Source: Cordylochernes scorpioides (Eukaryota > Arthropoda > Arachnida > Pseudoscorpiones > Chernetidae). From it: a DNA stretch of 64,000 bases. Below the pieces are notes generated by a model. The model saw only the letters and a program-made list of their open reading frames with translations. It had not been told where the DNA came from and ran no database searches. The stretch lies in contig CP092877.1 in NCBI GenBank assembly GCA_030710605.1, positions 74,626,524 to 74,690,523 on the forward strand, read 5' to 3'. Of the stretch, positions 3,932 through 61,850 are shown piece after piece. Made by a program: the position numbers and the translations under genes. Every line of letters starts with the position of its first letter. Position 1 is the stretch's first letter.

Positions 3932-6900
3932 GATGTGGCCACTCTACTGACTTCGATATGGCTGTTTGAATGTTGACTCTGTGTAGACAATCTTTATTGC
4001 TCTGTAGGACAACCTTGATGTGGTCATTCCACTGACTTCGATATGGCTGTTTGAATGTTGACTCTGTGTAGACAATCTTTATTGCTCTGTAGGACAACCT
4101 TGATGTGGCCACTCCACTGACTTCGATATGGCTGTTTGAATGTTGACTATCTGTAGACAATCTTTATTGCTCTGTAGGACAACCTTGATGTGGCCACTCC
4201 ACTGACTTCGATATGGCTGTTTGAATGTTGACTGTGTGTAGACAATCTTTATTGCTCTGTAGTGCAACCTTGATGTGGCCATTCCACTGACTTCGATATG
4301 GCTGTTTGAATGTTGACTCTGTGTAGACAATATTTATTGCTCTGTAGGACAACCTTGATGTGGCCACTCCTCTGACTTCGATATGGCTGTTTGAATGTTG
4401 ACTCTGTGTAGACAATCTTTATTGCTCTGTAGGACAACCTTGATGTGGTCACTCCACTGACTTCGATATGGCTGTTTGAATGTTGACTCTGTGTAGACAA
4501 TATTTATTGCTCTGTAGGACAACCTTGATGTGGCCATTCCACTGACTTCGATATGGCTGTTTGAATGTTGACTGTGTGTAGACAATCTTTATTGCTCTGT
4601 AGGACAACCTTGATGTGGTCACTCCACTGACTTCGATATGGCTGTTTGAATGTTGACTCTGTGTAGACAATATTTATTGCTCTGTAGGACAACCTTGATG
4701 TGGTCACTCCACTGACTTCGATATGGCTGTTTGAATGTTGACTCTGTGTAGACAATCTTTATTGCTCTGTAGGACAACCTTGATGTGGTCACTCCACTGA
4801 CTTCGATATGGCTGTTTGAATGTTGACTCTGTGTAGACAATCTTTATTGCTCTGTAGGACAACCTTGATGTGGTCACTCCACTGACTTCGATATGGCTGT
4901 TTGAATGTTGACTCTGTATAGACAATCTTTATTGCTCTGTAGTACAACCTTGATGTGGCCACTCCACTGGCTTCGATATGGCTGTTTGAATGTTGACTCT
5001 GTGTAGACAATCTTTATTGCTCTGTAGGACAACCTTGATGTGGTCACTCCACTGACTTCGATATGGCTGTTTGAATGTTGACTCTGTGTAGACAATCTTT
5101 ATTGCTCTGTAGGACAACCTTGATGTGGTCACTCCACTGACTTCGATATGGCTGTTTGAATGTTGACTGTGTGTAGACAATCTTTATTGCTCTGTAGGAT
5201 AACCTTGATGTGGTCACTCCACTGACTTCGATATGGCTGTTTGAATGTTGACTCTTTGTAGTCAATCTTTATTGCTCTGTAGGACAACCTTGATGTGGCC
5301 ACTCCACTGACTTCGATATGGCTGTTTGAATGTTGACTCTGTGTAGACACTCTTTATTGCTCTGTAGGACAACCTTGATGTGGTCATTCCACTGACTTCG
5401 ATATGGCTGTTTGAATGTTGACTCTGTGTAGACAATCTTTATTGCTCTGTAGGACAACCTTGATGTGGTCACTCTACTGATTTCGATATGGCTGTTTGAA
5501 TGTTGACTCTGTGTAGACAATCTTTATTACTCTTTAGGACAACCTTGATGTGGTCACTCCACTGACTTCGATATGGCTGTTTGAATTTTGACTGTGTGTA
5601 GACAATCTTTATTGCTCTGTAGGACAACCTTGATGTGGTCACTCCACTGACTTCGATATGGCTGTTTGAATGTTGACTCTGTGTAGACAATCTTTATTGC
5701 TCTGTAGGACAACCTTGATGTGGTCACTCCACTGACTTCGATATGGCTGTTTGAATGTTGACTCTGTGTAGACAATCTTTATTGCTCTGTAGGACAACCT
5801 TGATGTGGTCACTCCACTGACTTCGATATGGCTGTTTGAATGTTGACTCTGTGTAGACAATCTTTATTGCTCTGTAGGACAACCTTGATGTGGTCACTCC
5901 ACTGACTTCGATATGGCTGTTTGGATGTTGACTCTGTGTAGACAATCTTTATTGCTCTGTAGGACAACCTTGATGTGGTCACTCCACTGACTTCGATATG
6001 GCTGTTTGAATGTTGACTCTGTGTAGACAATCTTTATTGCTCTGTAGGACAACCTTGATGTGGTCACTCCACTGACTTCGATATGGCTGTTTGAATGTTG
6101 ACTCTGTGTAGACAATCTTTATTGCTCTGTAGGACAACCTTGATGTGGTCACTCACTGACTTCGATATGGCTGTTTGAATGTTGACTCTGTGTAGACAAT
6201 CTTTATTGCTCTGTAGGACAACCTTGATGTGGTCACTCCACTGACTTCGATATGGCTGTTTGAATGTTGACTCTGTGTAGACAATCTTTATTGCTCTGTA
6301 GGACAACCTTGATGTGGCCACTCCACTGACTTCGATATGGCTGTTTGAATGTTGACTCTGTGTAGACAATATTTATTGCTCTGTAGGACAACCTTGATGT
6401 GGCCACTCCACTGACTTCGATATGGCTGTTTGAATGTTGACTCTGTGTAGACAATCTTTATTGCTCTGTAGGACAACCTTGATGTGGCCACTCCACTGAC
6501 TTCGATATGGCTGTTTGAATGTTGACTCTGTGTAGACAATCTTTATTGCTCTGTAGGACAACCTTGATGTGGCCACTCCACTGACTTCGATATGGCTGTT
6601 TGAATGTTGACTCTGTGTAGACAATATTTATTGCTCTGTAGGACAACCTTGATGTGGCCACTCCACTGACTTCGATATGGCTGTTTGAATGTTGACTCTG
6701 TGTAGACAAAATTTATTGCTCTGTAGGACAACCTTGATGTGGCCACTCCACTGACTTCGATATGGCTGTTTGAATGTTAACTCTGTGTAGACAATCTTTA
6801 TTGCTCTGTAGGACAACCTTGATGTGGTCACTCTACTGACTTCGATATGGCTGTTTGAATGTTGACTCTGTGTAGACAATCTCTATTGCTCTGTACGACA

Positions 6901-9900
6901 ACCTTGATGTGGTCACTCCACTGACTTCGATATGGCTGTTTGAATGTTGACTCTGTGTAGACAATCTTTATTGCTCTGTACGACAACCTTGATGTGGCCA
7001 CTCCACTGACTTCGATATGGCTGTTTGAATGTTGACTGTGTGTAGACAATCTTTATTGCTCTGTACGGACAACCTTGATGTGGCCACTCCACTGACTTCG
7101 ATATGGCTGTTTGAATGTTGACTCTGTGTAGACAATCTTTATTGCTCTGTACGGACAACCTTGATGTGGCCACTCCACTGACTTCGATATGGCTGTTTGA
7201 ATGTTGACTCTGTGTAGACAATATTTATTGCTCTGTAGGACAACCTTGATGTGGCCACTCCACTGACTTCGATATGGCTGTTTGGATGTTGACTGTGTGT
7301 AGACAATCTTTATTGCTCTGTAGGACAACCTTGATGTGGTCACTCCACTGACTTCGATATGGCTGTTTGAATGTTGACTCTGTGTAGACAATCTTTATTG
7401 CTCTGTAGGACAACCTTGATGTGACCACTCAACTGACTTCGATATGGCTGTTTGGATGTTGACTCTGTGTAGACCATCTTTATTGCTCTGTAGGACAACC
7501 TTGATGTGGTCACTCCACTGACTTCGATATGGCTGTTTGAATGTTGACTCTGTGTAGACAATCTTTATTGCTCTGTAGGACCACCTTTATGTGGTCACTA
7601 CACTGACTTCGATATGGCTGTTTGAATGTTGACTCTGTGTAGACAATCTTTATTGCTCTGTAAGACAACCTTGATGTGGTCACTCCACTGACTTCGATAT
7701 GGCTGTTTGAATGTTGACTCTGTGTAGACAATCTTTATTGCTCTGTAGGACAACCTTGATGTGACCACTCCACTGACTTCGATATGGCTGTTTGGATGTT
7801 GACTCTGTGTAGACCATCTTTATTGCTCTGTAGGACAACCTTGATGTGGTCACTCCACTGACTTCGATATGGCTGTTTGAATGTTGACTCTGTGTAGACA
7901 ATCTTTATTGCTCTGTAGGACCACCTTTATGTGGTCACTCCACTGACTTCGATATGGCTGTTTGAATGTTGACTCTGTGTAGACAATCTTTATTGCTCTG
8001 TAGTACAACCTTGATGTGGTCACTCCACTGACTTCGATATGGCTGTTTGAATGTTGACTCTGTGTAGACAATCTTTATTGCTCTGTAGGACAACCTTGAT
8101 GTGGTCACTCCACTGACTACGATATGGCTGTTTGAATGTTGACTCTGTGTAGACAATCTTTATTGCTCTGTAGGACAACCTTGATGTGGCCACTCCACTG
8201 ACTACGATATGGCTGTTTGAATGTTGACTCTGTGTAGACAATATTTATTGCTCTGTAGAACAACCTTGATGTGGCCACTCCACTGGCTTCGATATGCCTG
8301 TTTGAATATTGACTCTGTGTAGACAATCTTTATTGCTCTGTAGGACAACCTTGATGTGACCACTCTACTGACTTCGATATGGCTGTTTGAATGTTGACTC
8401 TGTGTAGACCATCTTTATTGCTCTGTAGGACAACCTTGATGTGGTCACTCCACTGACTTCGATATGGCTGTTTGAATGTTGACTCTGTGTAGATAATCTT
8501 TATTGCTCTGTAGGACAACCTTGATGTGACCACTCTACTAACTTCGATATGGCTGTTTGAATGTTGACTCTGTGTAGACAACCATTATTGCTCTATAGGA
8601 CAACCTTGATGTGGCCACTTCACTGACTTCGATATGGCTGTTTGAATGTTGACTCTGTGTAGACAACCATTATTGCTCTGTCGGACAACCTTGATGTGGT
8701 CACTCCACTGACTTCGATATGGCTGTTTGGATGTTGACTCTGTGTAGACAATCTTTATTACTCTGTAAAGCAATCTTGATGTGGTCACTCCACTGACTTC
8801 GATATGGCTGTTTGAATGTTGACTCTGTGTAGACCATCTTTATTGCTCTGTAGGACAACCTTGATGTGGTCACTCCACTGACTTCGATATGGCTGTTTGG
8901 ATGTTGACTCTGTGTAGACAATCTTTATTGCTCTGTAGGACAACCTTGATGTGGTCACTCCACTGACTTCGATATGGCTGTTTGAATGTTGACTGTGTGT
9001 AGACAATCTTTATTGCTCTGTAGGACAACCTTGATGTGGCCACTCCACTGACTTCGATATGGCTGTTTGAATGTTGACTCTGTGTAGACAATCTTTATTG
9101 CTCTGTAGGACAACCTTGATGTGGCCACTCCACTGACTTCGATATGGCTGTTCGAATGTTGACTCTGTGTAGACAATCTTTATTGCTCTGTAGGACAACC
9201 TTGATGTGGTCACTCCACCGACTTCGATATGGCTGTTTGAATGTTGACTCTGTGTAGACAATCTTTATTGCTCTGTAGGACAACCTTGATGTGGCCACTC
9301 CACTGACTTCGATATGGCTGTTTGAATGTTGACTCTGTGTAGACAATCTTTATTGCTAGGTAGGACAACCTTGATGTGGCCACTCCACTGACTTCGATAT
9401 GGCTGTTCGAATGTTGACTGTGTGTAGACATTCTTCATTGCTTTGTAGTACAACCTTGATGTGGCCACTCCACTGGCTTCGATATGGCTGTTTGGATGTT
9501 GACTCTGTCTAGACAATCTTTATTGCTCTGTAGGACAACCTTGATGTGGCCACTCCACTGACTTCGATATGGCTGTTTGAATGTTGACTCTGTGTAGACA
9601 ATCTTTATTGCTCTGTAGGACAACCTTGATGTGGTCACTCCACTGACTTCGATATGGCTGTTTGGATGTTGACTCTGTGTGGACAATCTTTATTTCTCTG
9701 TAGGACAACCTTGATGTGGTCACTCCACTGACTACGATATGGCTGTTTGAATGTTGACTCTGTGTAGACAATCTTTATTGCTCTGTAGGACAACCTTGAT
9801 GTGGCCCCTCCACTGACTACGATATGGCTGTTTGATTGTTGACTCTGTGTAGACAATCTTTATTGCTCTGTAGGACAACCTTGATGTGGTCACTTCACTG

Positions 9901-12118
9901 ACTTCGATATGGCTGTTTGAATGTTGACTCTGTGTAGACAATCTTTATTGCTCTGTAGTACAACCTTGATGTGGCCACTCCACTGACTTCGATATGGCTG
10001 TTTGAATATTGACTCTGTGTAGACAATCTTTATTGCTCTGTAGGACAACCTTGATGTGACCACTCCACTGACTTCGATATGGATGTTTGAATGTTGACTC
10101 TGTGTAGAAAATCTTTATTGCTCTGTAAGACAACCTTGATGTGGCCACTCCACTGACTTCGATATGGCTGTTTGAATGTTGACTCTGTGTAGATAATCTT
10201 TATTGCTCTGTAGGACAACCTTGATGTGACCACTCTACTAACTTCGATATGGCTGTTTGAATATTGACTCTGTGTAGACAACCATTATTGCTCTGTAGGA
10301 CAACCTTGATGTGGCCACTTCACTGACTTCGATATGGCTGTTTGAATGTTGACTCTGTGTAGACAACCATTATTGCTCTGTCGGACAACCTTGATGTGGT
10401 CACTCCACTGACTTCGATATGGCTGTTTGGATGTTGACTCTGTGTAGACAATCTTTATTACTCTGTAAAGCAATCTTGATGTGGTCACTCCACTGACTTC
10501 GATATGGCTGTTTGAATGTTGACTCTGTGTAGACCATCTTTATTGCTCTGTAGGACAACCTTGATGTGGTCACTCCACTGACTTCGATATGGCTGTTTGG
10601 ATGTTGACTCTGTGTAGACAATCTTTATTGCTCTGTAGGACAACCTTGATGTGGTCACTCCACTGACTTCGATATGGCTGTTTGAATGTTGACTCTGTGT
10701 AGACAATCTTTATTGCTCTGTAGGACAACCTTGATGTGGTCACTCCACTGGCTTCGATATGGCTGTTTGAATGTTGACTCTGTGTAGACAACCATTATTG
10801 CTCTGTAGGACAACCTTGATGTGGTCACTCCACTGACTTCGATATGGCTGTTTGAATGTTGACTCTGTGTAGACAACCATTATTGCTCTGTAGGACAACC
10901 TTGATGTGACCACTCCACTGACTTCGATATGGCTGTTTGAATGTTGACTCTGTGTAGACAATCTTTATTGCTCTGTAGGACAACCTTGATGTGGTCACTC
11001 CACTGACTTCGATATGGCTGTTTGGATGTTGACTCTGTGTGGACAATCTTTATTTCTCTGTAGGTCAACCTTGATGTGGTCACTCCACTGACTACGATAT
11101 GGCTGTTTGATTGTTGACTCTGTGTAGACAATCTTTATTGCTCTGTAGGACAACCTTGATGTGGTCACTCCACTGACTTCGATATGGCTGTTTGAATGTT
11201 GACTCTGTGTAGATAATCTTTATTGCTCTGTAGGACAACCTTGATGTGACCACTCTACTAACTTCGATATGGCTGTTTGAATATTGACTCTGTGTAGACA
11301 ACCATTATTGCTCTGTAGGACAACCTTGATGTGGCCACTTCACTGACTTCGATATGGCTGTTTGAATGTTGACTCTGTGTAGACAACCATTATTGCTCTG
11401 TCGGACAACCTTGATGTGGTCACTCCACTGACTTCGATATGGCTGTTTGGATGTTGACTCTGTGTAGACAATCTTTATTACTCTGTAAAGCAATCTTGAT
11501 GTGGTCACTCCACTGACTTCGATATGGCTGTTTGAATGTTGACTCTGTGTAGACCATCTTTATTGCTCTGTAGGACAACCTTGATGTGGTCACTCCACTG
11601 ACTTCGATATGGCTGTTTGGATGTTGACTCTGTGTAGACAATCTTTATTGCTCTGTAGGACAACCTTGATGTGGTCACTCCACTGACTTCGATATGGCTG
11701 TTTGAATGTTGACTCTGTGTAGACAATCTTTATTGCTCTGTAGGACAACCTTGATGTGGTCACTCCACTGGCTTCGATATGGCTGTTTGAATGTTGACTC
11801 TGTGTAGACAATCTTTATTGCTCTGTAGGACAACCTTGATGTGGTCACTCCACTGGCTTCGATATGGCTGTTTGAATGTTGACTGTGTGTAGACAATCTT
11901 TATTGCTCTGTAGGACAACCTTGATGTGGTCACTCCACTGGCTTCGATATGGCTGTTTGAATGTTGACTCTGTGTAGACAATCTTTATTGCTCTGTAGGA
12001 CAACCTTGATGTGGCCACTCCACTAACTTCGATATGGATGTTTGGATGTTGACTCTGTGTAGACAATCTTTATTGCTCTGTAGTACAACCTTGATGTGTT
12101 CACTCCACTACCTTCTCA
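3932..12118. repeat. 85-bp satellite, 96 tandem units
   Basis: Units run from GATGTGGCC at 3932 to a last degenerate unit starting at 12093. That is 8161 bp, exactly 96 units of 85 bp plus one net base (one deletion near 6154 and two insertions near 7070 and 7152). Most units differ by only 1-5 substitutions such as GGCC/GGTC, CTGTGTG/CTCTGTG and ATCTTT/ATATTT/ACCATT. The chain of 73-83 aa minus-strand frames is a by-product, since 85 is not a multiple of three and each unit is read in all frames in turn. Both edges are abrupt. No telomeric or centromeric signal is visible. Confidence 0.97.
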
Positions 12119-13248: not shown

Positions 13249-13284
13249 CGATGTTTCGATAAAAATCGTTTGTCTTCGTCAGGA
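13249..13284 (-). ncRNA. Hammerhead-like motif, family M, decayed
   Basis: On the minus strand the core CTGACGA (13276-13282) is followed by an extra A, a weakened stem II (GACAAA ... TTTATC), GAAA and then CATC. It aligns with the better-preserved family M motifs at 30783, 46890 and 61518. Stem II is partly mismatched and stem III has lost its palindromic ACGT, so activity is unlikely. Confidence 0.5.
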
Positions 13285-13885: not shown

Positions 13886-15168
13886 CAAAGTGAGTTCAAT
13901 AATTTCCAGGTCTGGTTAAAAAAGAAAATAAATAAAAAAGCTAAAGAATTTTTTTTTATACAGAGTTAAATATTGGACATTCGACCACACCTGACTGAAA
14001 GCACGCGCCGATCTAAAAATAGAACAAAACAACTTCCTTGTAAGGTTCGCATTTCTAATTTTAAGAATCTGCATTAAGTTTTGTTTTAAATTGAAAAAAA
14101 GTGCTACTGAGACGCATGAATTGATTAAAGAAGCTTTTGGCGATGCAGCTTTATCCCGTTCAAGAACCTTTGAATGGTTTTCACGCTTCCTAAAAGGTCG
14201 GGAAAAGGTAAACGATGATCAGCATACTGGGCGTCCAAGATCATTACGTTGCGAGGAAAACAAGCTCAAATAAATGAATTAATTAAATCTAACGGAAGAA
14301 TTTCTATTAAAGACTTATCTTCAGAGACTGGACTATCTGTAGGACTGTGTCATCAAATAGTAACAAAAGATTTGGGCATGATCCGGACGTCTTCAAAATT
14401 TGTTCCCCGGATTCTAACAGAGGAACAAAAGGAGGTTAGAAGGGATGTCTGCAAAAACTTGGTTGAAATGACTCGGACCGATCCAGAATGGATGCAAAAA
14501 ATCATTACCGGGGATGAGACATGGGTGTATCGGTACGACTCGGATACCAAACGTCAATCCAGTCAATGGATTGAAAGAGGGGAACCGAAACCCAAAAAGG
14601 CAAGATCTACAAAATCCAAAGTCAAGACATTGCTTGTTACATTTTTTTATATTAATCGTTTGGTTCACCATGAATTTATTCCTTTTGGACGTAAAATTAA
14701 TCAAGAGGTTTATTTGGGGATAATGAGGCGCTTAAGGGAGGCAGTGCGCCTTAAAAGACCTGAAAGATGGCAAAACAATGACTGGATACTTTACGTCGAT
14801 AATGCGCGGCCGCACACAGCCCATGTTGTTTTGCAGTTCTTGGCCAAGCATTTAACCATACAGATCCCTCATCCACCCTATTCCCCCGACTTAGCCCCCA
14901 ATGACTTTTTCCTCTATCCTAAATTGAAAATGAAGTTAAAAGGAAGGAAATTTGACAACGTTGATATGATACAAGCTGAATCGAAGGCAACCTTGAGGAA
15001 CCTCTCAAAAAGTGATTTTATATCCTGCTTCGACAATTGGAAAAAAAGATGGAACAGGTGTATTGAGGCAGGAGGGGCATATTTTGAAAAATATTAAATT
15101 AGTTTTTTTATTTGTTTTATTTTTTTCAAAGATACAGAGCAGTCCTGGAAATTAATAAACGCACCTTG
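13886..15168 (+). mobile_element. mariner element with 28-bp inverted repeats
   Basis: The 5' terminus (CAAAGTGAGTT...) and 3' terminus (...AACGCACCTTG) are inverted repeats of about 28 bp that match at all but a few positions. Both are bounded by TA (13884-13885 and 15169-15170), the mariner target duplication. The element is about 1283 bp, a usual size for mariner. It lies inside a family A repeat. No other copy is seen in the window. Confidence 0.92.
14091..15097 (+). pseudogene. mariner transposase, interrupted by one frameshift
   Basis: Encodes a Tc1/mariner superfamily DNA transposase that would bind the terminal inverted repeats and cut and paste at TA. The first 60 codons (14091-14273) cover the N-terminal helix-turn-helix region, ending in a GRPR hinge-like motif (GRPRSLR). 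The frame then shifts around 14250-14270 and continues open to 15097 for about 280 residues. The catalytic signature is complete: GDETWVYRYD, then YVDNARPH, then SPDLAPNDFF. There are 34 residues between the second and third acidic residues, so this is D,D34D, the true mariner pattern. The HPPYSPDLAP motif and a C-terminal W-x-R-W-x-x-C-I segment ending YFEKY are also present. The second frame starts at a TTG and has no initiator of its own. The single frameshift means the copy is probably inactive; the break could also be a sequencing or assembly error. Confidence 0.92.
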
Positions 15169-17325: not shown

Positions 17326-17407
17326 TATCTTATTTTTTGTCTTAATTTATTTATTTATTCTTGTTTAAATAAAAAGGTATATATTGGATCAAAATATAAT
17401 TTCATTT

Positions 17408-17450
17408 TACCAATATTTCAGTTGGCTGAACGCCAACCTTTATCAAGGTG
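17408..17450 (-). ncRNA. Hammerhead-like three-way junction, family K copy 1
   Basis: On the minus strand: stem I ACC (17449-17447), core TTGATAA, one extra A, stem II GGTTGGC / loop GTTCA / GCCAACT, GAAA (17419-17416), a TAT mini-stem III, T at the cleavage position, then GGT closing stem I. The layout is that of a type I hammerhead with a minimal stem III. The normally invariant C3 and G8 are U and A, which can still pair. Flanking sequence extends as a long inverted repeat. Confidence 0.5.
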
Positions 17451-17529
17451 TTATATTTAATGTGTGTCAACAACAAACTCAGCGCCACATTACGTCAATA
17501 GAATGAAGTTTAAAAAATATATATATATA

Positions 17530-18430
17530 TGTTGTAATATTTTCCAATATATCTATGTCTCCATGTGTTGTATAGTTATAATGTAATTGCCAAAGTGACA
17601 AATAAAATTTCGAGTGAGTGACAGTCGACGCCAGTAGGAGGAAAAGGTCCAAAAAACAAGTCGGGTTCCTAGGTGTGTCCTTTCTTACTCAAACAGATTA
17701 GTCGGCTTTGAGACACAATGCTTACAGACCCCTCTAGACAGATCTCCCCTGACCGGTGTCGGCTTCACTTACTCTCTCGCCATCTCTATGGTGCCATTCA
17801 ACATGTCTCGTCCTTTTGTGTAATCCCAATCACGCCTGAACCCACTCTAAACATTGTGGCCACCACGACTGCAACCAACATGCCACACTACATTCATCCA
17901 ACAAGATACAACAACTACATTACTACATATATATATTTTTTTGATTATATTTAATTCATTCTTGTATAATATGTTTATAACTGCTTCTGTTTAAAAATCT
18001 AAATCGACGCTTCCTAGCCGGGATATCGCGTTTTTTTTTTTTGTATTGAAATAAAATAATGGAAATTATTAGAGAAAAAAAAGTGAGATTTTTTCAACAC
18101 GATTCAAATATGGTAAAGTTATTGAAACAGAACGTCTCCCAATGATCTATGGCCATAAATGGGATTGTAAGGAAGTCGTTCATGCTCCTCAATAAATGAT
18201 GTAAAAGGGGAAAAAATCGAAAAACAAACTCAGATTGGATGCCTGCCAAACGATAATTGGAAAACCCGCCTAGATCGCCGAGGAGATTCGTCTGGTGGAA
18301 GTTGATTAAAAAACGCGATCTAATAAACTACGGTAGCTATGTGAGACTGTCTAGAAAACTCTATGTGATATGGATAGAAACTATGTAATAATAATATAAA
18401 AATATCTTATTATTTAATTACATATATATT
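17530..18430. other. AT-rich sequence with a LINE-tail-like fragment, no gene seen
   Basis: The segment 17700-17950 shares CACCACGACTGC and CCAACATGC with 29.10-29.22 kb, so it is dispersed repeat, perhaps the 3' part of a non-LTR element. The short plus-strand frame here has no recognisable domain. The rest is AT-rich. Confidence 0.4.
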
Positions 18431-18486
18431 AATGTTTTTTTTTAGAAAATAAAAAGACATATATTGAATTGAATAAAATATTTATT

Positions 18487-18530
18487 TGCCAATATTTCGG
18501 TTGGCTGAACGCCAACCTTTATCGAGGCAT
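18487..18530 (-). ncRNA. Hammerhead-like three-way junction, family K copy 2
   Basis: Minus strand: stem I TGCC (18529-18526) pairs with GGCA (18490-18487). Core TCGATAA, extra A, stem II GGTTGGC/GCCAACC (seven perfect pairs), GAAA, TATT. Relative to copy 1, stem I has changed on both strands and still pairs. The element is nested in a longer hairpin whose arms (ATATATTGGATTAAATAAAA and its partner) lie outside stem I. Confidence 0.55.
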
Positions 18531-18719
18531 TACATTTTTGTATAAACAAACTCAGCGCTGCATATATTTTATTTAATCCAATATATGCCTTTTTACTATC
18601 TAATGATTTAAGTATGAATTGTTATATTTTCAGAATATATTAATTTGTATAAAAAAACACTATCTAATAATGAAATAAACTATGTAGTAATGTAAGAAAT
18701 TAGATTTTTTAAAAATCGA

Positions 18720-30569: not shown

Positions 30570-30782
30570 TGTCTCTATAAGTATCAACATTGAACTAGAG
30601 ATCCTGTCCTTGTCTGGAGAAAGACTCTCTCAAGATGGAGGAGCCATCCTTTCCTGAGAACAACTTTTTATATTTTATCATTAAATTGTTAATATATTTG
30701 TTTAATTTCTCATTAATTTTTGTAACAATTAACTAAAGTGTAAATAAAATATTTTATTTTCTTGAAAATAAAGATACTTCGG

Positions 30783-30854
30783 CCAGTAAATCTTTTTATT
30801 ACCTCGACGTTTCGACAAAAATATTTTGTCCTCGTCAGGACAAAGATTTACTGG
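30783..30854 (-). ncRNA. Hammerhead ribozyme, family M, best copy
   Basis: Self-cleaving RNA motif on the minus strand. Stem I outer helix CCAGTAAATCTTT (30854-30842) pairs perfectly over 13 bases with AAAGATTTACTGG (30795-30783), with an internal loop toward the core. Core CTGACGA (30838-30832); one extra G; stem II GACAAAA/TTTTGTC with a TAT loop (seven pairs); GAAA (30813-30810); CGTC, where ACGT forms a two-pair mini stem III and C is the cleavage-site base. This is the type I, minimal-stem-III form known from pseudo-LTRs of Penelope-like retroelements. The 3' flank TACTGGCCGAAGTATCTTTA continues into the family M body. Confidence 0.85.
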
Positions 30855-30869
30855 TATTAGTAAATTAAA

Positions 30870-31205
30870 TTTAATTGACATCTATCGTTAAAATTTAACA
30901 CAAATAAATTTACTGGCAATATGTTTCTTTTAAATATCATCAAATATTATCTCTACAGACCTTACTGCAATGATATGAGTTATTGAATGAGAGGGCTTGG
31001 CTCATCAGTAGTGAACCCTCTCAGCGGTTTCGTCATGGCGAAATGGCGAAATTGGCGAAATATGGCGAAACCGCTGAGAGGGTTCACTACTGATGAGCCA
31101 AGCCCTCTCATTCAATAACTCATATCATTGCAGTAAGGTCTGTAGAGATAATATTTGATGATATTTAAAAGAAACGCATTGACAGTAAATTTATTTTTGT
31201 GTAAA
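30870..31205. repeat. Family A foldback, compact, GAGAGGG subfamily
   Basis: Arms of about 140 bp separated by a short centre containing four GGCGAAA-like repeats near 31035-31070. Stems are GAGAGGG/CCCTCTC as in the copy at 26.5 kb. Outer flanks (AAATAAATTTACTGGCAAT, and its partner with a few mismatches) are also inverted. Confidence 0.85.
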
Positions 31206-41009: not shown

Positions 41010-41489
41010 TTAAACAGTCGAGCGTTCTATTGAAGAGGCGTACTGGCAAGGTGAGAGAGTAGGTGTTTGCCGTGGGGACATAGGGGAGTAGGTACCGAAT
41101 CCCGCCGCTGTATGCTGCTTCGCCTTGAGTCGTAAAGAAGCGATACTGGAAGTACATTGCTCTCGGTATACGTAAGGAGGTGCTGCGGCAGCGTATGGGC
41201 ACGAGGGTCCTCCAGTAGGCCCTGCGGGGCTTGGGGAAGCTGCAGCTGCGGCGTTGAAGCAGGCCATGCTTTGTCCTGCTGCTGAAGCTAGGCCAGGCCA
41301 GGGGAAGGTCTTTGCGCTAAGCGGGCTGGGGACCTTGGCCGCCCAATTATTATAGGAGTACCCGGAGTAGAGCGGTTCGTCAAACGGCTGCATCAGCCCG
41401 TTGAATTGTGTGCCGAAACCATTCTTTAACTCGGCCGCTGCATTCCGCTCACGTTTCCTCCACTTGGCCCGTCGGTTCTTAAACCACAC
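41010..41489 (-). CDS. Pitx: Pitx/Ptx paired-type homeobox gene, terminal exon
   Basis: Encodes the C-terminal 159 residues of a Pitx family transcription factor, a nuclear DNA-binding protein of the K50 (Bicoid-class) homeodomain group. The exon opens with [15 protein letters not shown], homeodomain residues 47-60, including lysine 50, which specifies TAATCC sites. Next comes the Pitx-typical FNGLMQP (about residues 29-35) and [10 protein letters not shown] (43-52). A low-complexity Ala/Pro/Ser linker follows, then PPYVYR and the OAR motif [12 protein letters not shown] (115-126), and a CQYA tail. The 3' splice site reads TGTGCGCAG then GTG, a phase-0 junction at homeodomain position 46/47 that is shared by paired-class genes. 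The first codon GTG is valine inside the protein, not a start. The exon is clearly more GC-rich than its surroundings. No exon for the first 46 homeodomain residues is seen up to 64000, so the preceding intron is probably over 22.5 kb. Confidence 0.96.
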
Positions 41490-41690
41490 CTGCGCACATA
41501 GACCGAGTGGTTAGACTACATCTACATGGTACAAATAGCATCACAAGGTAATTCAACGTAAGCTGTTTCATTCTACCCAGACTTTTCAATAAGACTATGA
41601 GGCATTGATGTCCTTGCTAGAAGAAACTATCAAATTATATTGACAAACATTTTCAGTTTTTTTTTCTGATCAGGTTTTAGAGGGAAGAAT
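41490..41690 (-). other. Pitx intron, acceptor-proximal part
   Basis: Starts with the acceptor CAG at 41490-41492. No repeat family is recognised in this stretch. Confidence 0.7.
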
Positions 41691-43799: not shown

Positions 43800-44385
43800 G
43801 CGAGTTGGTGGAGTAGAGGTGGTCCCCCCGGACCTTGCAGGAGGGCAGCTGTTGGGCGATGAGCTCTTAACTAAATGTCAGGGCCGGGTCGTCGGAATCA
43901 GGGATTGATTGCTTTTTTTTTTTTCTGAAAAATTTGTTCTTTACCAGATCATTGATTCTTAAAGATGGCGGAATAAAATTTTCGCATAATCTGTTGATAT
44001 TTAAAAGAGATTTCCATTTTAATAGTTTCAGAAAAATGATTCTCGACTGGGGATCTTTTGATTCTTAAATATGACGGAATAAATTTTTCTTCTTCACATT
44101 AATCTTTTGATATTAAAATGAGGCTTCCATTTTTACTAGTTGCAATTATTTCCTAATTGACAATTTCTGATATAAGGTTATCCCAAAAGTTCGTGTTTTC
44201 CTTTTTACAAGGCGAATAATATTATTACGGTGAATACATAATAATACAAATCAATGAAGAATGTTTATTGAAAATAAAAAGTTGCACAAGAAATTTAACC
44301 CTGGAGGCTTAATTTATTTTATAATAATACAATTACTTTATACATAATACAAATACATAACGGCGAATAATATTATGGCGAATAA
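43800..44385. other. Mixed AT-rich sequence with a family L end
   Basis: No gene. A family L terminus (ATAAGGTTATCCCAAAAGTT) lies at 44173. A GATTCTTAAAGATGGCGGA segment and its diverged repeat lie 100 bp apart near 43957 and 44064. Confidence 0.4.
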
Positions 44386-44667
44386 TACACCTATCCCCCA
44401 ATTTACACGGTAGATACGTTCCTGAGAAAAACGTGTAAATCGGGGGATAGGTGTACACAGAAATAAAATGCATTGACAGGTTAAAATATATAGTCAGCAC
44501 ATATAAGCTCGGGATTCCTCGTAAGATGTGTACACAGCGCATGTGTTCAATCACAGTAGCATTTAGTATAGTGCGATAAAAACAACAACAAAAAAAACTT
44601 ATTTGGAAAACTGTGTAAAAGCGAAAACGTGTAAAACAAGTACTGTGTAAATCGGGGGAAAGGTGTA
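44386..44667. mobile_element. Miniature inverted-repeat element D, copy 1
   Basis: TA-flanked, ends TACACCTATCCCCCAATTTA and its complement-like TAAATCGGGGGAAAGGTGTA. Subterminal GTGTAAA/TTTACAC motifs recur many times in both orientations. Other copies: 58949-59411, 59895-60174 and 60400-60670. Confidence 0.8.
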
Positions 44668-46889: not shown

Positions 46890-46932
46890 TTCTCAACGTT
46901 TCGACAAAAATCTTTTGTCTTCGTCAGGAGAA
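46890..46932 (-). ncRNA. Hammerhead ribozyme, family M, second good copy
   Basis: Minus strand: stem I TTCTC (46932-46928) with GAGAA (46894-46890), core CTGACGA, extra A, stem II GACAAAA/TTTTGTC (seven pairs, loop GAT), GAAA, CGTT. The cleavage-site triplet is GTT in place of GTC, which is permitted though slower. Stem I sequence differs from the copy at 30783 yet still pairs. Confidence 0.75.
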
Positions 46933-50136: not shown

Positions 50137-50238
50137 CATTGTGTCGCGGTCTTACGCAATTCTGGCCTTAACTACCCGTTTCATGATTTTTCAGGATGCC
50201 TGAATGACTAATTTTTTGGTCGTTGAGGTACAGCTTGC

Positions 50239-50281
50239 ACCACACTGATGAGGGCCAACAGCCCGAAACGCGTCCGTGGTT
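50239..50281 (+). ncRNA. Hammerhead ribozyme, canonical core
   Basis: All invariant core residues are present. Stem I ACCAC (50239-50243) with GTGGT (50276-50280); CTGATGA (50245-50251); stem II GGGC/CAACA loop/GCCC; GAAA (50265-50268); CGCGTC, where ACGCGT supplies a minimal stem III and C50274 is the predicted cleavage nucleotide. This is the type I form found in Penelope-like retroelement pseudo-LTRs. Flanks are complementary beyond stem I (TAACTACCC with GGGTATTTGG) and the 3' side runs on to GATAGATGGCGCAAGCC. No reverse transcriptase ORF is nearby. Confidence 0.88.
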
Positions 50282-50399
50282 AGCTTTTCTTTGATTAATC
50301 AAGAATGGGTATTTGGTCAATCCTGGAATAATTAAAAAATCAACGAGAATAGTTGATATTTATTCCGATAGATGGCGCAAGCCATCAGCAACTTTTAAT

Positions 50400-50870
50400 A
50401 GCACGATAAGGAGATGCCTTTTTCTTAAAGTATTTATTATTTTATTAACAGAGTATTATTTTTTATGTTTATATTTTGCTATACACTCTGTACACTTCCC
50501 TCTTTTGCTTATCTTTTGTTTATCACTCATAGTTTGTTCTTGTCTGAAATAAATTGTTGTCTGATCTCAAAGTTGTGGTCTTCCCTAATTCTCCACGTGG
50601 CAATATGTATAGATAAATGTAAAGACATACATGTATGACAGCGTAAGTGTCCCTAGGGGGACATAGCGCTTTAAATTGAAATAAATAAATAAACATGTTT
50701 TATATATCAAATAATAATATATATAAATTATAAGTTTTTTTATTATTATTTCTAAGTTATAAGCTTTCGGGGGATGTTCTTTATTAAACAAAGATATAAA
50801 AGTGAATAATCATAGAATATATTTTGAGTTAAATGTTTTTGATAATATGTTTATATATTTTTTAAATAAA
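50400..50870. other. AT-rich sequence with a LINE-tail-like fragment
   Basis: At 50640-50695 GTCCCTAGGGGGACATAGCGC and AAATAAATAAAT resemble the LINE 3' tail seen near 48010-48070. No gene. Confidence 0.45.
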
Positions 50871-50905
50871 AAGGCATATAGTGGATCAAAATATAATTTA
50901 TTTTA

Positions 50906-50946
50906 CCAATATTTCAGTTGGCTGAACGCCAACCTTTATCAAGTTA
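50906..50946 (-). ncRNA. Hammerhead-like motif, family K copy 3
   Basis: Minus strand with core TTGATAA, extra A, stem II GGTTGGC/GCCAACT, GAAA, TATTGG. Stem I is weakened: the base pair next to the core survives but the next is a mismatch. Confidence 0.45.
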
Positions 50947-51104
50947 TTATAACTTTTTAATGTGTGTCAACAACTATGGGTAAAATAGATGATTTTTTGA
51001 CCCAAAGATTTATTTATGGATTGCTCTATTTTCAAAATGTTCATATATGTTATATACGATTATTCGTATTTAAATATATAACGTTGCTTGATAAAGGGAA
51101 TCCC

Positions 51105-58948: not shown

Positions 58949-59411
58949 TACACCTATCCCCCGATTTACACGGTACTTGTTTTACACGTTTTCGCTTTTA
59001 CACGGTTTTCTAAATAAGTTTTTTATTACAGTAGAACTTGGATAATTCGAACCCCAAGGGACCATAAAAAAATTCGAATTATCCAAAAATTCGAATTAAA
59101 AACGGAAATTCTATTTATAGGAAATTCTAGGGACCAAGATAAATATTCGAATTAAAGAGGTTTTCGAATTAAAGAAGTTCGAATTATCCAAGTTCTACTG
59201 TATTATTTTTTTTTATCGCACTATACTAAATGCTACTGTGATTGAACACATGCGCTGTGTACACATCTCACGAGGAATCCCGAACTTATGTGCTGACTTG
59301 CTGCACACGCACACTGTGTCTGTATTTCTTTTTTTTATATAAATTTTTAATTTTCGATTTACACGTTTTTCTCAGGAACATATCTACCGTGTAAATCGGG
59401 GGATAGGTGTA
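58949..59411. mobile_element. Miniature element D copy 2, with element E inserted
   Basis: TA-flanked D ends at 58949 and 59411. The centre is split by element E at 59027-59202. Removing E restores the TTTTTTATCGCACTATACT stretch seen in copy 3. Confidence 0.82.
59027..59202. mobile_element. Miniature inverted-repeat element E (pogo-like)
   Basis: TACAGTAGAACTTGGATAAT at left and ATTATCCAAGTTCTACTGTA at right, exact complements for 20 bases. Flanked by TA. The body repeats ATTCGAATTA in both orientations. The terminus closely resembles Tigger/pogo ends. Confidence 0.82.
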
Positions 59412-59890
59412 TTCTCTCTTTCAACAAAAAAGTATAAAAACTGAGATAACTTAAGACGTAAAGGTTAAATATTTGGTTTATTAATATTTATACCTCACTA
59501 GTCAAGTTCCGATTACAACAATTTAATACAATTCTTACTAAAATCATCCGTTGGCCCCAACAACTGGCCATGGCGCCCAAACTGCGCTGACAGAGTTGTC
59601 AGTGCGGAAGAGACAAATGGTCAGGATGATGGATGGAGAACAGACGAAGACATCGGAGTATGCAAATTTACCAGTGAGTCCGGTGATTTATCAACCCATG
59701 GGATCTCCATTGAGGCGGTCAGTGAGATATAACCCATATAGTTCCACTGACGAGGAAGATGTGCCTTTCTACCTAGGTTCCAATTTATTGAATTTTTTTC
59801 AATTTTTATATTAGGTTCCGCTCAAAAAAAAAAAAAAAAGAGAACCTAGCTAATGTTATTTACAACGGTTAGTATGTACATCAAATTTAC
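59412..59890 (+). other. Unassigned stretch with an 87-codon frame
   Basis: The frame 59551-59814 starts with ATG and has a protein-like middle ending in an acidic patch (YSSTDEEDVPFY) before running into AT-rich sequence. It has no recognised domain. It may be an exon, given the downstream CTAGGTTCC, or a decayed element ORF. Low confidence in either. Confidence 0.25.
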
Positions 59891-59894
59891 AGTG

Positions 59895-60174
59895 TACACC
59901 TATCCCCCGATTTACACGGTACTTGTTTTACACGTTTTCGCTTTTACACGGTTTTCCAAATAAGTTTTTTTTTGTTTTTATCGCACTATACTAAATGCTA
60001 CTGTGATTGAACACATGCGCTGTGTACACATCTCACGAGGAATCCTGAGCTTATGTGCTGACTTGCTGCACACGCACACTGTGTCTGTATTTCTAATTTT
60101 TATTTTTTTTTAATTTTCGATTTACACGTTTTTCTTAGGAACGTATCTATCGTGTAAATCAGGGGATAGGTGTA
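59895..60174. mobile_element. Miniature element D, copy 3
   Basis: Uninterrupted copy, TACACCTATCCCCCGATTTA to GGGGATAGGTGTA, about 280 bp. Confidence 0.83.
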
Positions 60175-60399
60175 TTCACATATTTACATATATGTCTTTT
60201 TATTCCTCCTTTTTGCAAAATAACTTTATTAAGATCTCTTTGTGATTTATTAATGAATTATTTTTATGTACTTATTACAATTATTTTAAAAATATAAGAT
60301 AGAACTCATTTTTTCCTTTAATATTTTAAGATATTTTACATATTTGATTGCAATTTTTATAATAATTTTTTCATGCACAAATTTCTCCCACCTACTCTG

Positions 60400-60670
60400 T
60401 ACATCTATCCCCCGATTTACACGGTACTTGTTTTACACGTTTTCGCCTTTACACGGTTTTCCAAATAAGTTTTTTTTGTTGTTTTTATCGCACTATACTA
60501 AAATGCGATATTCTACTCTATACTACCTATGTTGAAAAGAATATTGGGAGGCTCTGATTCATGAGGGGGCGAACACCTATTCAGATTTGACAATTTAATA
60601 TACACCTATCCCTCGATTTACACGTTTTTCTCAGGAACGTATCTACCGTGTAAATCGGGGGATAGGTGTA
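60400..60670. mobile_element. Miniature element D copy 4, with a family A scrap inside
   Basis: Same ends as copy 3, but the middle is replaced from about 60512 to 60600 by a fragment with AATATTGGGAGGCTCTGATTC, a diverged family A segment. Confidence 0.7.
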
Positions 60671-60738
60671 TTTTAATTGATTTCAACTGTGATATTATAA
60701 CACTATGCGGCGCTAAGTTTGTGTATACAAAAATGTAA

Positions 60739-60781
60739 TGCCTCGATAAAGGTTGGCGTTTAGCTAGCCGAAATATTGGTA
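60739..60781 (+). ncRNA. Hammerhead-like three-way junction, family K copy 4
   Basis: Plus strand: stem I TGCC (60739-60742) with GGTA (60778-60781, one wobble); core TCGATAA; extra A; stem II GGTTGGC/GCTAGCC with two G-T wobbles; GAAA; TATT. The substitutions in stem II all preserve pairing. Confidence 0.52.
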
Positions 60782-60991
60782 AAATATATTTTTTTAAAAT
60801 CCAATATATGCCTTTTTATTATCTAATGAATTAAGTATGGATTGCTCTATTTTCAAAATATTTACATATATGTATTTTTATTCCTCCTTTTTCCAAAATA
60901 ACTTTATTAGGTGCCGCTCAAAAAGAGCAACCTTTAGCTTATGCCATTTACAATGGTTAGTATGTACAGATTCTTTTCATTTGCAGTCTAT

Positions 60992-61499: not shown

Positions 61500-61560
61500 A
61501 TCTTTTTTTTATTGTCTTGACGTTTCGACAAAAATCTTTTGTCCTCGTCAGAAGCGAACA
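61500..61560 (-). ncRNA. Hammerhead ribozyme, family M, third copy
   Basis: Minus strand: CTT (61556-61554) with AAG (61520-61518) as inner stem I, core CTGACGA (61553-61547), extra G, stem II GACAAAA/TTTTGTC with GAT loop, GAAA (61528-61525), CGTC. The outer stem I partner present in the copy at 30783 is missing on the 5' side, though AAAGATTTACTG remains on the 3' side. Confidence 0.72.
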
Positions 61561-61619: not shown

Positions 61620-61850
61620 TGAAAAAATAGTACAAATGTGATATTGTACTGGGATAAGGTGCATAATTATGAAAAAAAGGCATCTCCTTATCGTGCAACT
61701 GAAGTTACTGATGGCTTGCGCCATCTATCGGAATAAATATCAACTATTCTCGTTGATTTTTAATTATTACAGAATTGGCCAAATACCCATTCTTGATTAA
61801 TCAAGAAAAGCTAACCACGGACGCGTTTCGGGCTGTTGGCCCTCATTATA
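61620..61850 (-). repeat. Rearranged Penelope-like remnant with half a hammerhead
   Basis: Minus strand 61846-61811: ATGAGGGCCAACAGCCCGAA then ACGCGTCCGTGG, identical to the 3' part of the ribozyme at 50245 but lacking CTG and the 5' half of stem I. The adjoining 61680-61800 matches the 3' flank of that copy, and 61621-61668 matches one end of the 299-bp element at 49838. Confidence 0.7.

What the first reader, a model, noticed from the sequence alone, without database searches (positions are those of the whole stretch)
17408..18530. Hammerhead-like family with U3-A8 in place of C3-G8
Four dispersed copies (17408, 18487, 50906, 60739) share hammerhead topology, but the core reads TTGATAA or TCGATAA instead of CTGATGA. 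C3 and G8 normally form a base pair, and G8 is the proposed general base-side or acid residue. Here both change together to a U-A pair. Stem I also changes on both sides between copies (ACC/GGT against TGCC/GGCA). That pattern suggests selection for the fold and possibly a ribozyme with altered chemistry, or a protein-binding relic. I know of no described natural class with this core.
Basis: partly seen in the sequence, partly recalled or inferred. Interest (0 to 1): 0.82.

Follow-up and report, generated by a model that had tools for sequence, protein, structure and literature searches.

The report
Hammerhead ribozyme repeats, known U3-A8 variant
Four scattered copies of a repeat in an animal-like genome carry a small hammerhead-type RNA motif in which one core base pair is swapped for another; the swap was already reported in natural hammerheads in 2011, so this is a neat but fairly ordinary variant of a common transposon-linked motif.

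Summary
Four dispersed copies (cores at 17446-, 18525-, 50942-, 60743+) have U3 and A8 in 4 of 4. A strict hammerhead scan finds 3 of the 4 and gives 0 hits in 1,500 shuffled windows; the fourth (50942) has a broken stem I. The motif is more conserved than its flanks: 33 of 41 columns invariant against 28 of 54 to 46 of 142, depending on how much flank is counted. The window also holds a canonical C3-G8 minimal hammerhead in four copies, one decayed, and a fuller canonical one. Best reading: a minimal type I hammerhead, of the kind known from Penelope-like elements, with a compensated core pair. The novelty claim fails: Perreault et al. 2011 report natural C3-G8 to U3-A8 covariation in several hammerheads and cite in vitro activity. 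Altered chemistry is unsupported, since A8 keeps the 2'-OH proposed as the acid. Whether these copies cleave is unknown: two also carry U4C, stem III is only AUAU, and longer flanks disrupt stem I in 17446. New member of a known kind; low interest.

The parts
17409..17449 (-). U3-A8 hammerhead-like motif, subfamily A (UUGAUAA, stem I ACC/GGU, U17)
   Evidence: folds alone to stem I + stem II, -14.3 kcal/mol, z -3.47
18487..18529 (-). U3-A8 hammerhead-like motif, subfamily B (UCGAUAA, stem I UGCC/GGCA, U17)
   Evidence: -19.5 kcal/mol, z -4.90
50905..50945 (-). U3-A8 hammerhead-like motif, subfamily A; stem I broken at 2.2-1.2
   Evidence: z -3.34 but hammerhead pairing is 0.002 of the ensemble
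60739..60781 (+). U3-A8 hammerhead-like motif, subfamily B; two stem II changes kept as G-U wobbles
   Evidence: -15.2 kcal/mol, z -2.72
17343..17474 (-). repeat unit around copy 17446, 88% alike to 50843-50974
   Evidence: BLAST
50843..50974 (-). repeat unit around copy 50942
   Evidence: BLAST
18442..18564 (-). repeat unit around copy 18525, 88% alike to 60704-60826
   Evidence: BLAST
60704..60826 (+). repeat unit around copy 60743
   Evidence: BLAST
18442..18603 (.). 40-nt inverted arms (18442-18481 and 18564-18603, 88% complementary) that flank copy 18525
46891..46931 (-). canonical C3-G8 minimal hammerhead (CUGACGA, stem III ACGU), comparator family
   Evidence: Rfam Hammerhead_1 10.9 bits, E 8.3, below gathering 34
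61516..61554 (-). canonical C3-G8 minimal hammerhead, comparator family
30807..30838 (-). canonical C3-G8 minimal hammerhead (core to stem III), comparator family
   Evidence: (1 mismatch)
13251..13282 (-). canonical C3-G8 minimal hammerhead, decayed copy (one stem II pair broken, ACAU in stem III)
   Evidence: (3 mismatches), letters; not found by the motif scans
50229..50294 (+). fuller canonical hammerhead (CUGAUGA, stem III ACGCGU), retrozyme-like
   Evidence: Rfam Hammerhead_HH9 19.4 bits, E 0.089 in a 1.2-kb search, below gathering 52

Best explanation
The four sites are copies of a dispersed repeat (about 125-175 bp, two subfamilies) whose centre is a minimal type I hammerhead of the kind found in Penelope-like elements, Terminons and, dispersed in thousands, in animal genomes. 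Its core pair C3-G8 is replaced by U3-A8. Shown: the motif, its copies, its conservation above the flanks, canonical sister motifs in the same window. Inferred: in the source element's RNA it cut 3' of U17 by ordinary hammerhead chemistry (G12 as base, 2'-OH of nucleotide 8 as acid). U-A keeps the core Watson-Crick pair, and stem III (only AUAU) would be stable mainly when two motifs pair as a dimer or with protein help. The present copies are probably weak or dead relics: B has U4C, 50942 has a broken stem I, and flanks of 17446 compete for stem I.
For: Strict motif with a Watson-Crick 3-8 pair: 5 real hits, 0 in 1,500 shuffles. G5, A6, A9, G12, A13, A14, A15.1-U16.1 and H17 (= U) kept in 4 of 4. 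Motif columns invariant 33/41 against flanks 46/142, 36/95, 32/73 or 28/54 as the flank is trimmed. Same layout as the canonical copies in the window, down to the extra nucleotide after A9 and the 4-nt stem III. Hammerhead structure counted over 8 motifs: 102 of 108 cells paired, 10 of 14 pairs changed on both sides, covariation score 0.758 against 0.381 shuffled, 0 of 500 reaching it. Natural U3/A8 hammerheads, and in vitro activity of covariants: PMC3088659 section 8. In a Penelope-like hammerhead C3G or G8C kills and the double mutant partly restores cleavage, which there needs the element's protein (PMC11167929 passages). Minimal type I hammerheads are dispersed by the thousand in many metazoan genomes (PMC7761336 passages).
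Against: The contrast with flanks shrinks to P 0.003 with the tightest flank, and in one pair (18525 and 60743) the upstream flank (14/14 to 35/41) is about as alike as the motif (37/41). In one search, 15 of 500 shuffles reach 10 changed pairs and 486 of 500 reach the count of pair types; the two families differ in every stem, so this is in effect one contrast. No reverse transcriptase or GIY-YIG Pfam match in the 14.4 of 64 kb scanned, which reaches only about 0.5 kb past 18525 and 50942 on one side. Rfam gives no hammerhead match to 3 of 4 copies at relaxed threshold (60743 not so tested), though the canonical copy also fails gathering. Inverted arms look more like a DNA element. [quoted passage not shown] In longer context stem I of 17446 falls from P 0.98 to 0.13 to 0.00. 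Extended stem I beats shuffled flanks in B (P 0.033, 0.017), not in A (0.432, 0.453).
Confidence: 0.62

Rival explanations
1. Non-catalytic use: the hairpin with its flanks is kept for another role in the element (reverse-transcriptase or transposase binding, or a foldback DNA end), and the hammerhead core is a relic that lost cleavage when C3-G8 and, in B, U4 changed.
For: Inverted arms at 18442-18603 and inverted flank matches between copies. A second conserved stretch downstream, outside the hammerhead (alignment). U4C in 2 of 4. In the reported Penelope-like element, ribozyme mutants do not affect insertion in vitro (PMC11167929 passages).
Against: Unpaired core letters G5, A6, A9, GAA and U17 are kept in 4 of 4, which a mere hairpin would not need; a paired change at 3 and 8 is what a kept core predicts.
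Confidence: 0.2
2. Neutral relics of one dead master: the likeness is shared ancestry and recent spread.
For: Only four copies; U3 and A8 never vary among them; 1 of 4 has lost stem I; no coding partner found in the part scanned; the motif-flank contrast weakens when outer flanks are trimmed (P 0.003).
Against: Motif 34-40 of 41 identical in the six pairs against 44-66 of 84-90 downstream and 17-35 of 41-51 upstream; between subfamilies upstream is 12-15 of 32.
Confidence: 0.15
3. A ribozyme with altered chemistry.
For: Core letters differ from the consensus at two (A) or three (B) positions.
Against: Both proposed catalytic groups are kept (G12; 2'-OH of residue 8). Natural U3/A8 hammerheads are already reported as hammerheads with a compensatory change.
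Confidence: 0.02
4. Chance resemblance of a repeat's hairpin to a hammerhead.
For: Short motif; stem I has only 3-4 contiguous pairs in the three copies where it holds.
Against: 0 hits in 1,500 shuffles; canonical sisters with the same layout in the same window.
Confidence: 0.01

Closest known systems
Natural U3-A8 hammerheads of Perreault et al. 2011 (PMC3088659, section 8)
   Same: C3-G8 replaced by U3-A8 in natural motifs; the paper gives it as an example of a compensatory change
   Different: Which organisms and contexts carried it was not in the text I read and the supplement was not open to me; whether any is a multi-copy animal repeat, or carries U4C too, is unknown to me
Minimal type I hammerheads of Penelope-like elements and Terminons (Cervera and de la Pena 2014; Lunse et al. 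2017; neither held, known through PMC7761336 and PMC11167929 passages)
   Same: Short or missing helix III, dispersed copies, dimer model
   Different: Core U3-A8; stem III AUAU; no element proteins found in the part scanned
Canonical CTGACGA minimal hammerheads in this window (13282, 30838, 46927, 61551)
   Same: Layout, extra nucleotide after A9, 4-nt stem III
   Different: C3-G8; ACGU stem III (ACAU in 13282); different stem II and flanks
Viroid hammerhead with U4C (PMC3088659 Discussion passage)
   Same: C at position 4 as in subfamily B
   Different: C3-G8 there (recalled); infectious RNA, not a genomic repeat
Metazoan retrozymes (PMC7229834 passages)
   Same: Genomic hammerhead repeats of a few hundred bp
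   Different: Those have full type I motifs in tandem repeats; these copies are dispersed, the nearest two 1,079 bp apart

Membership tests
Hammerhead ribozyme, type I | Core letters C3-U4-G5-A6-N7-G8-A9 | tested here: not met
   U3 and A8 in 4 of 4; C4 in 2 of 4; G5, A6, A9 in 4 of 4
Hammerhead ribozyme, type I | Watson-Crick pair between 3 and 8 | tested here: met
   U-A in 4 of 4 by sequence
Hammerhead ribozyme, type I | G12-A13-A14, A15.1-U16.1, H17 | tested here: met
   4 of 4, H17 = U
Hammerhead ribozyme, type I | Stem II | tested here: met
   7 pairs in 4 of 4, preceded by one unpaired A
Hammerhead ribozyme, type I | Stem I | tested here: inconclusive
   3-4 pairs in 3 of 4, broken in 50942; lost in longer context in 17446
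Hammerhead ribozyme, type I | Match to Rfam hammerhead models at gathering score | tested here: not met
   No match for any copy; none at relaxed threshold for 3 of 4. The canonical 46927 also fails, 10.9 bits, so this does not discriminate
Hammerhead ribozyme, type I | Self-cleavage 3' of residue 17 | not testable with these tools
   needs an RNA assay
Penelope-like or Terminon minimal hammerhead | Very short or absent helix III | tested here: met
   AUAU, no loop, 4 of 4
Penelope-like or Terminon minimal hammerhead | Lies in the pseudo-LTR of an element with RT and GIY-YIG | tested here: inconclusive
   No such Pfam match in 14.4 kb scanned; the rest of the 64 kb was not scanned with Pfam
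Metazoan retrozyme | Tandem repeats of 150-450 bp with full type I motifs | tested here: not met
   Copies dispersed and minimal

The most novel reading that the evidence does not exclude
A mobile family in an animal spread with a hammerhead core fixed for U3-A8, and one lineage went further to U3-C4-A8, still cleaving as a dimer or with its protein's help. It would be a natural lineage in which three positions usually held invariant have moved under selection for weak or assisted cleavage.
Probability: 0.15. Interest if true: 0.42.

Novelty: new member of a known kind. Interest (0 to 1): 0.24.

Why it matters
It shows how far the hammerhead core can drift in animal repeats while keeping its fold, and gives C3-G8 and U3-A8 families side by side in one window for a clean activity comparison. 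It also shows that the Rfam hammerhead models miss both at their set thresholds. It does not open a new ribozyme class.

Tried and rejected
Rfam: no match to the four copies at gathering; at relaxed threshold no hammerhead match to 17446, 18525 or 50942; 60743 was not tested so. Other low-scoring matches over the copies (mir-16, AfaR, MIR7502 at 34.8 bits and E 0.055, and others) lie below their gathering scores and I took them as chance.

Pfam on read-through frames around the copies: the mariner-type transposase, one sub-threshold DUF2207_C match (E 0.0098), nothing else at E 0.01.

Relatives elsewhere: no whole genome is held for this window. A 24-base piece of the motif gave 0 in IMG/VR, a 22-base piece 0 in GTDB contigs, the canonical sister 0 in IMG/VR. 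Looser patterns gave 3, 10 and 6 IMG/VR stretches, 19 in all. I looked at the match and its near surroundings (L001-L003, L004-L019) and judged them chance by eye, without a statistic. So there was no copy from another genome and no test on a wider alignment.

Extended stem I as a shared feature: of nine motifs, own flanks beat mononucleotide shuffles at P below 0.05 in three (18525, 60743, 30838); 50245 was 0.055; the A copies, 46927, 61551 and 13282 were not better. Own flanks averaged -7.09 and flanks swapped between groups -3.06 kcal/mol, but the own mean is carried by 30838 (-17.8) and 50245 (-11.2).

Covariation counts put two families with different stem II into one alignment; they support a shared fold but are in effect one contrast.

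Literature by letters: 'hammerhead' with 'U3-A8' 0 papers; 'hammerhead', 'C3-G8' and 'base pair' together 0 papers; core letters with hammerhead, one unrelated paper. The statement in PMC3088659 came from reading it (passages; section 8 in full). PMC11014351 and PMC10085705 passages added nothing used. Cervera 2014, Lunse 2017 and Przybilski and Hammann 2007 were not held and not seen.

Full report
What is there. The four sites are real. Read in the hammerhead sense they are: 17446(-) ACC-UUGAUAA-A-GGUUGGC-GUUCA-GCCAACU-GAAA-UAUU-GGU; 50942(-) the same but with AAC on the 5' side of stem I; 18525(-) UGCC-UCGAUAA-A-GGUUGGC-GUUCA-GCCAACC-GAAA-UAUU-GGCA; 60743(+) UGCC-UCGAUAA-A-GGUUGGC-GUUUA-GCUAGCC-GAAA-UAUU-GGUA. 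They sit in two subfamilies, A (17446, 50942; 88% alike over 136 columns) and B (18525, 60743; 88% over 124 columns). U3 and A8 are in 4 of 4. B also carries C at position 4.

More than chance. A strict pattern (core YYGANRA with a Watson-Crick 3-8 pair, stem II of 7, GAAA, 4-nt palindromic stem III, H17, stem I of at least 3) finds five sites in the window, three of them U3-A8 and two C3-G8, and none in 1,500 dinucleotide shuffles. Copy 50942 fails it because pair 2.2-1.2 is broken. Looser scans gave 5 sites against a mean of 0.13 (60 shuffles) and 7 against 0.39 (100 shuffles; one of the 7, at 44046, looks like chance). Alone, the three intact copies fold as stem I plus stem II; 50942 does so in only 0.002 of its ensemble.

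Internal controls. The same window carries a canonical minimal hammerhead, CUGACGA, at 13282, 30838, 46927 and 61551, all on the minus strand, with an extra nucleotide between A9 and stem II and a 4-nt stem III (ACGU; ACAU in 13282). 13282 is decayed: it has a broken stem II pair too and is missed by the motif scans. There is also one fuller canonical hammerhead at 50245(+), with a second copy cut inside its core near 61850(-) (92.5% over 187 nt). So the U3-A8 family stands beside ordinary hammerhead repeats. Rfam also misses the canonical minimal copy at gathering (10.9 bits against 34), so its silence on the U3-A8 copies says little.

Constraint. Over the four copies 33 of 41 motif columns are invariant. 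The flanks give 46 of 142 (P 4e-8), 36 of 95 (P 4e-6), 32 of 73 (P 1e-4) or 28 of 54 (P 0.003) as they are trimmed towards the motif. The motif bounds came from the hammerhead fold. Between 18525 and 60743 the near upstream flank is as alike as the motif, so the constraint shows mainly between subfamilies. Counting the hammerhead structure over the eight minimal motifs, 102 of 108 cells pair, 10 of 14 pairs change on both sides (15 of 500 shuffles reach 10), and the covariation score is 0.758 against 0.381 (0 of 500 reach it); pair types are no richer than shuffled (486 of 500 reach 17). This is in effect a contrast of two lineages: 3-8 is C-G in 4 and U-A in 4; 15.2-16.2 is C-G in 3, broken in 1 and U-A in 4. 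Within the U3-A8 copies nothing varies at 3 or 8, so they give no covariation there.

How it likely works. From PMC6155905 passages, G12 is the proposed base and the 2'-OH of G8 the proposed acid. An A at 8 keeps that 2'-OH, and U3-A8 keeps the pair. A route through a U-G wobble is easy (inference). A stem III of AUAU is too short to stand alone (inference), so a dimer or protein help is likely. The Penelope-like PAc hammerhead shows no cleavage without its protein, and there the C3G/G8C double mutant partly restores what either single loses (PMC11167929 passages). Against activity: the pairwise mutagenesis paper reports that its core U-turn is not easily rescued except by the G:C swap (PMC9901934 passages). 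U4C considerably decreases activity in vitro, though a viroid with it stays infectious (PMC3088659 Discussion passage). In longer context 17446 loses stem I (P 0.13, 0.00), 50942 never has it, and the B copies keep it at P 0.66-0.97.

What is known. PMC3088659 section 8, read in full, states that C3 and G8 covary to U3 and A8 in several natural hammerheads and that covarying ribozymes had been shown active in vitro by its reference 32 (Przybilski and Hammann 2007, not held, not seen). PMC7761336 passages state that many animal genomes hold thousands of minimal type I hammerheads, mostly dispersed and some in pseudo-LTRs of Penelope-like elements. The U3-A8 family fits both descriptions. What I did not find described is the triple core U3-C4-A8 of subfamily B; the searches were and the passages named, and the Perreault supplement was not open to me.

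Limits. That it is an animal rests on a U6 gene, a mariner-type transposase (Pfam Transposase_1) and a homeodomain-type frame (the Pitx resemblance is recalled). No genome is held, so there are only four copies. The link to Penelope-like elements is by motif alone: no RT or GIY-YIG match in the 14.4 of 64 kb scanned, which reaches only about 0.5 kb past 18525 and 50942 on one side. The inverted arms around 18525, and inverted flank matches between copies, leave the kind of element open.

Noticed in passing
window 30760-30900 (-): The canonical minimal hammerhead at 30838 is flanked by a perfect 13-bp inverted repeat (CCAGUAAAUCUUU / AAAGAUUUACUGG, -17.8 kcal/mol, P 0.001 against shuffled flanks) that would extend its stem I beyond an internal loop.
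   Followed up: partly
window 50245 (+) and about 61850 (-): Two copies of a retrozyme-like repeat with a canonical hammerhead, 92.5% alike over 187 nt; the second begins inside the hammerhead core.
   Followed up: partly
window 60595-60676, 60117-60176, 59354-59413, 44384-44455: Palindromic MITE-like repeat (ACACCTATCCC...GGGATAGGTGT), several copies, one about 30 bp from the 60743 unit.
   Followed up: no
window 14219-15097 (+): Transposase frame without an internal stop (ORF; Pfam Transposase_1, E 2.1e-10); mariner-type by recall.
   Followed up: no
window 3932-12109: Tandem array of an 85-bp unit, about 96 copies, 95% matches.
   Followed up: no
window 41010-41510 (-): Homeodomain-type coding frame, Pitx-like by recall.
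   Followed up: no
downstream of the U3-A8 motifs, e.g. 17380-17415: A second conserved stretch (CCAATATATGCCTTTTTATT with single changes) can pair with the 3' side of the hammerhead (AUAUUGG/CCAAUAU); base 1.1 of 17446 pairs downstream at P 0.86-0.99, of 50942 at 0.89 or 0.02 by context.
   Followed up: partly
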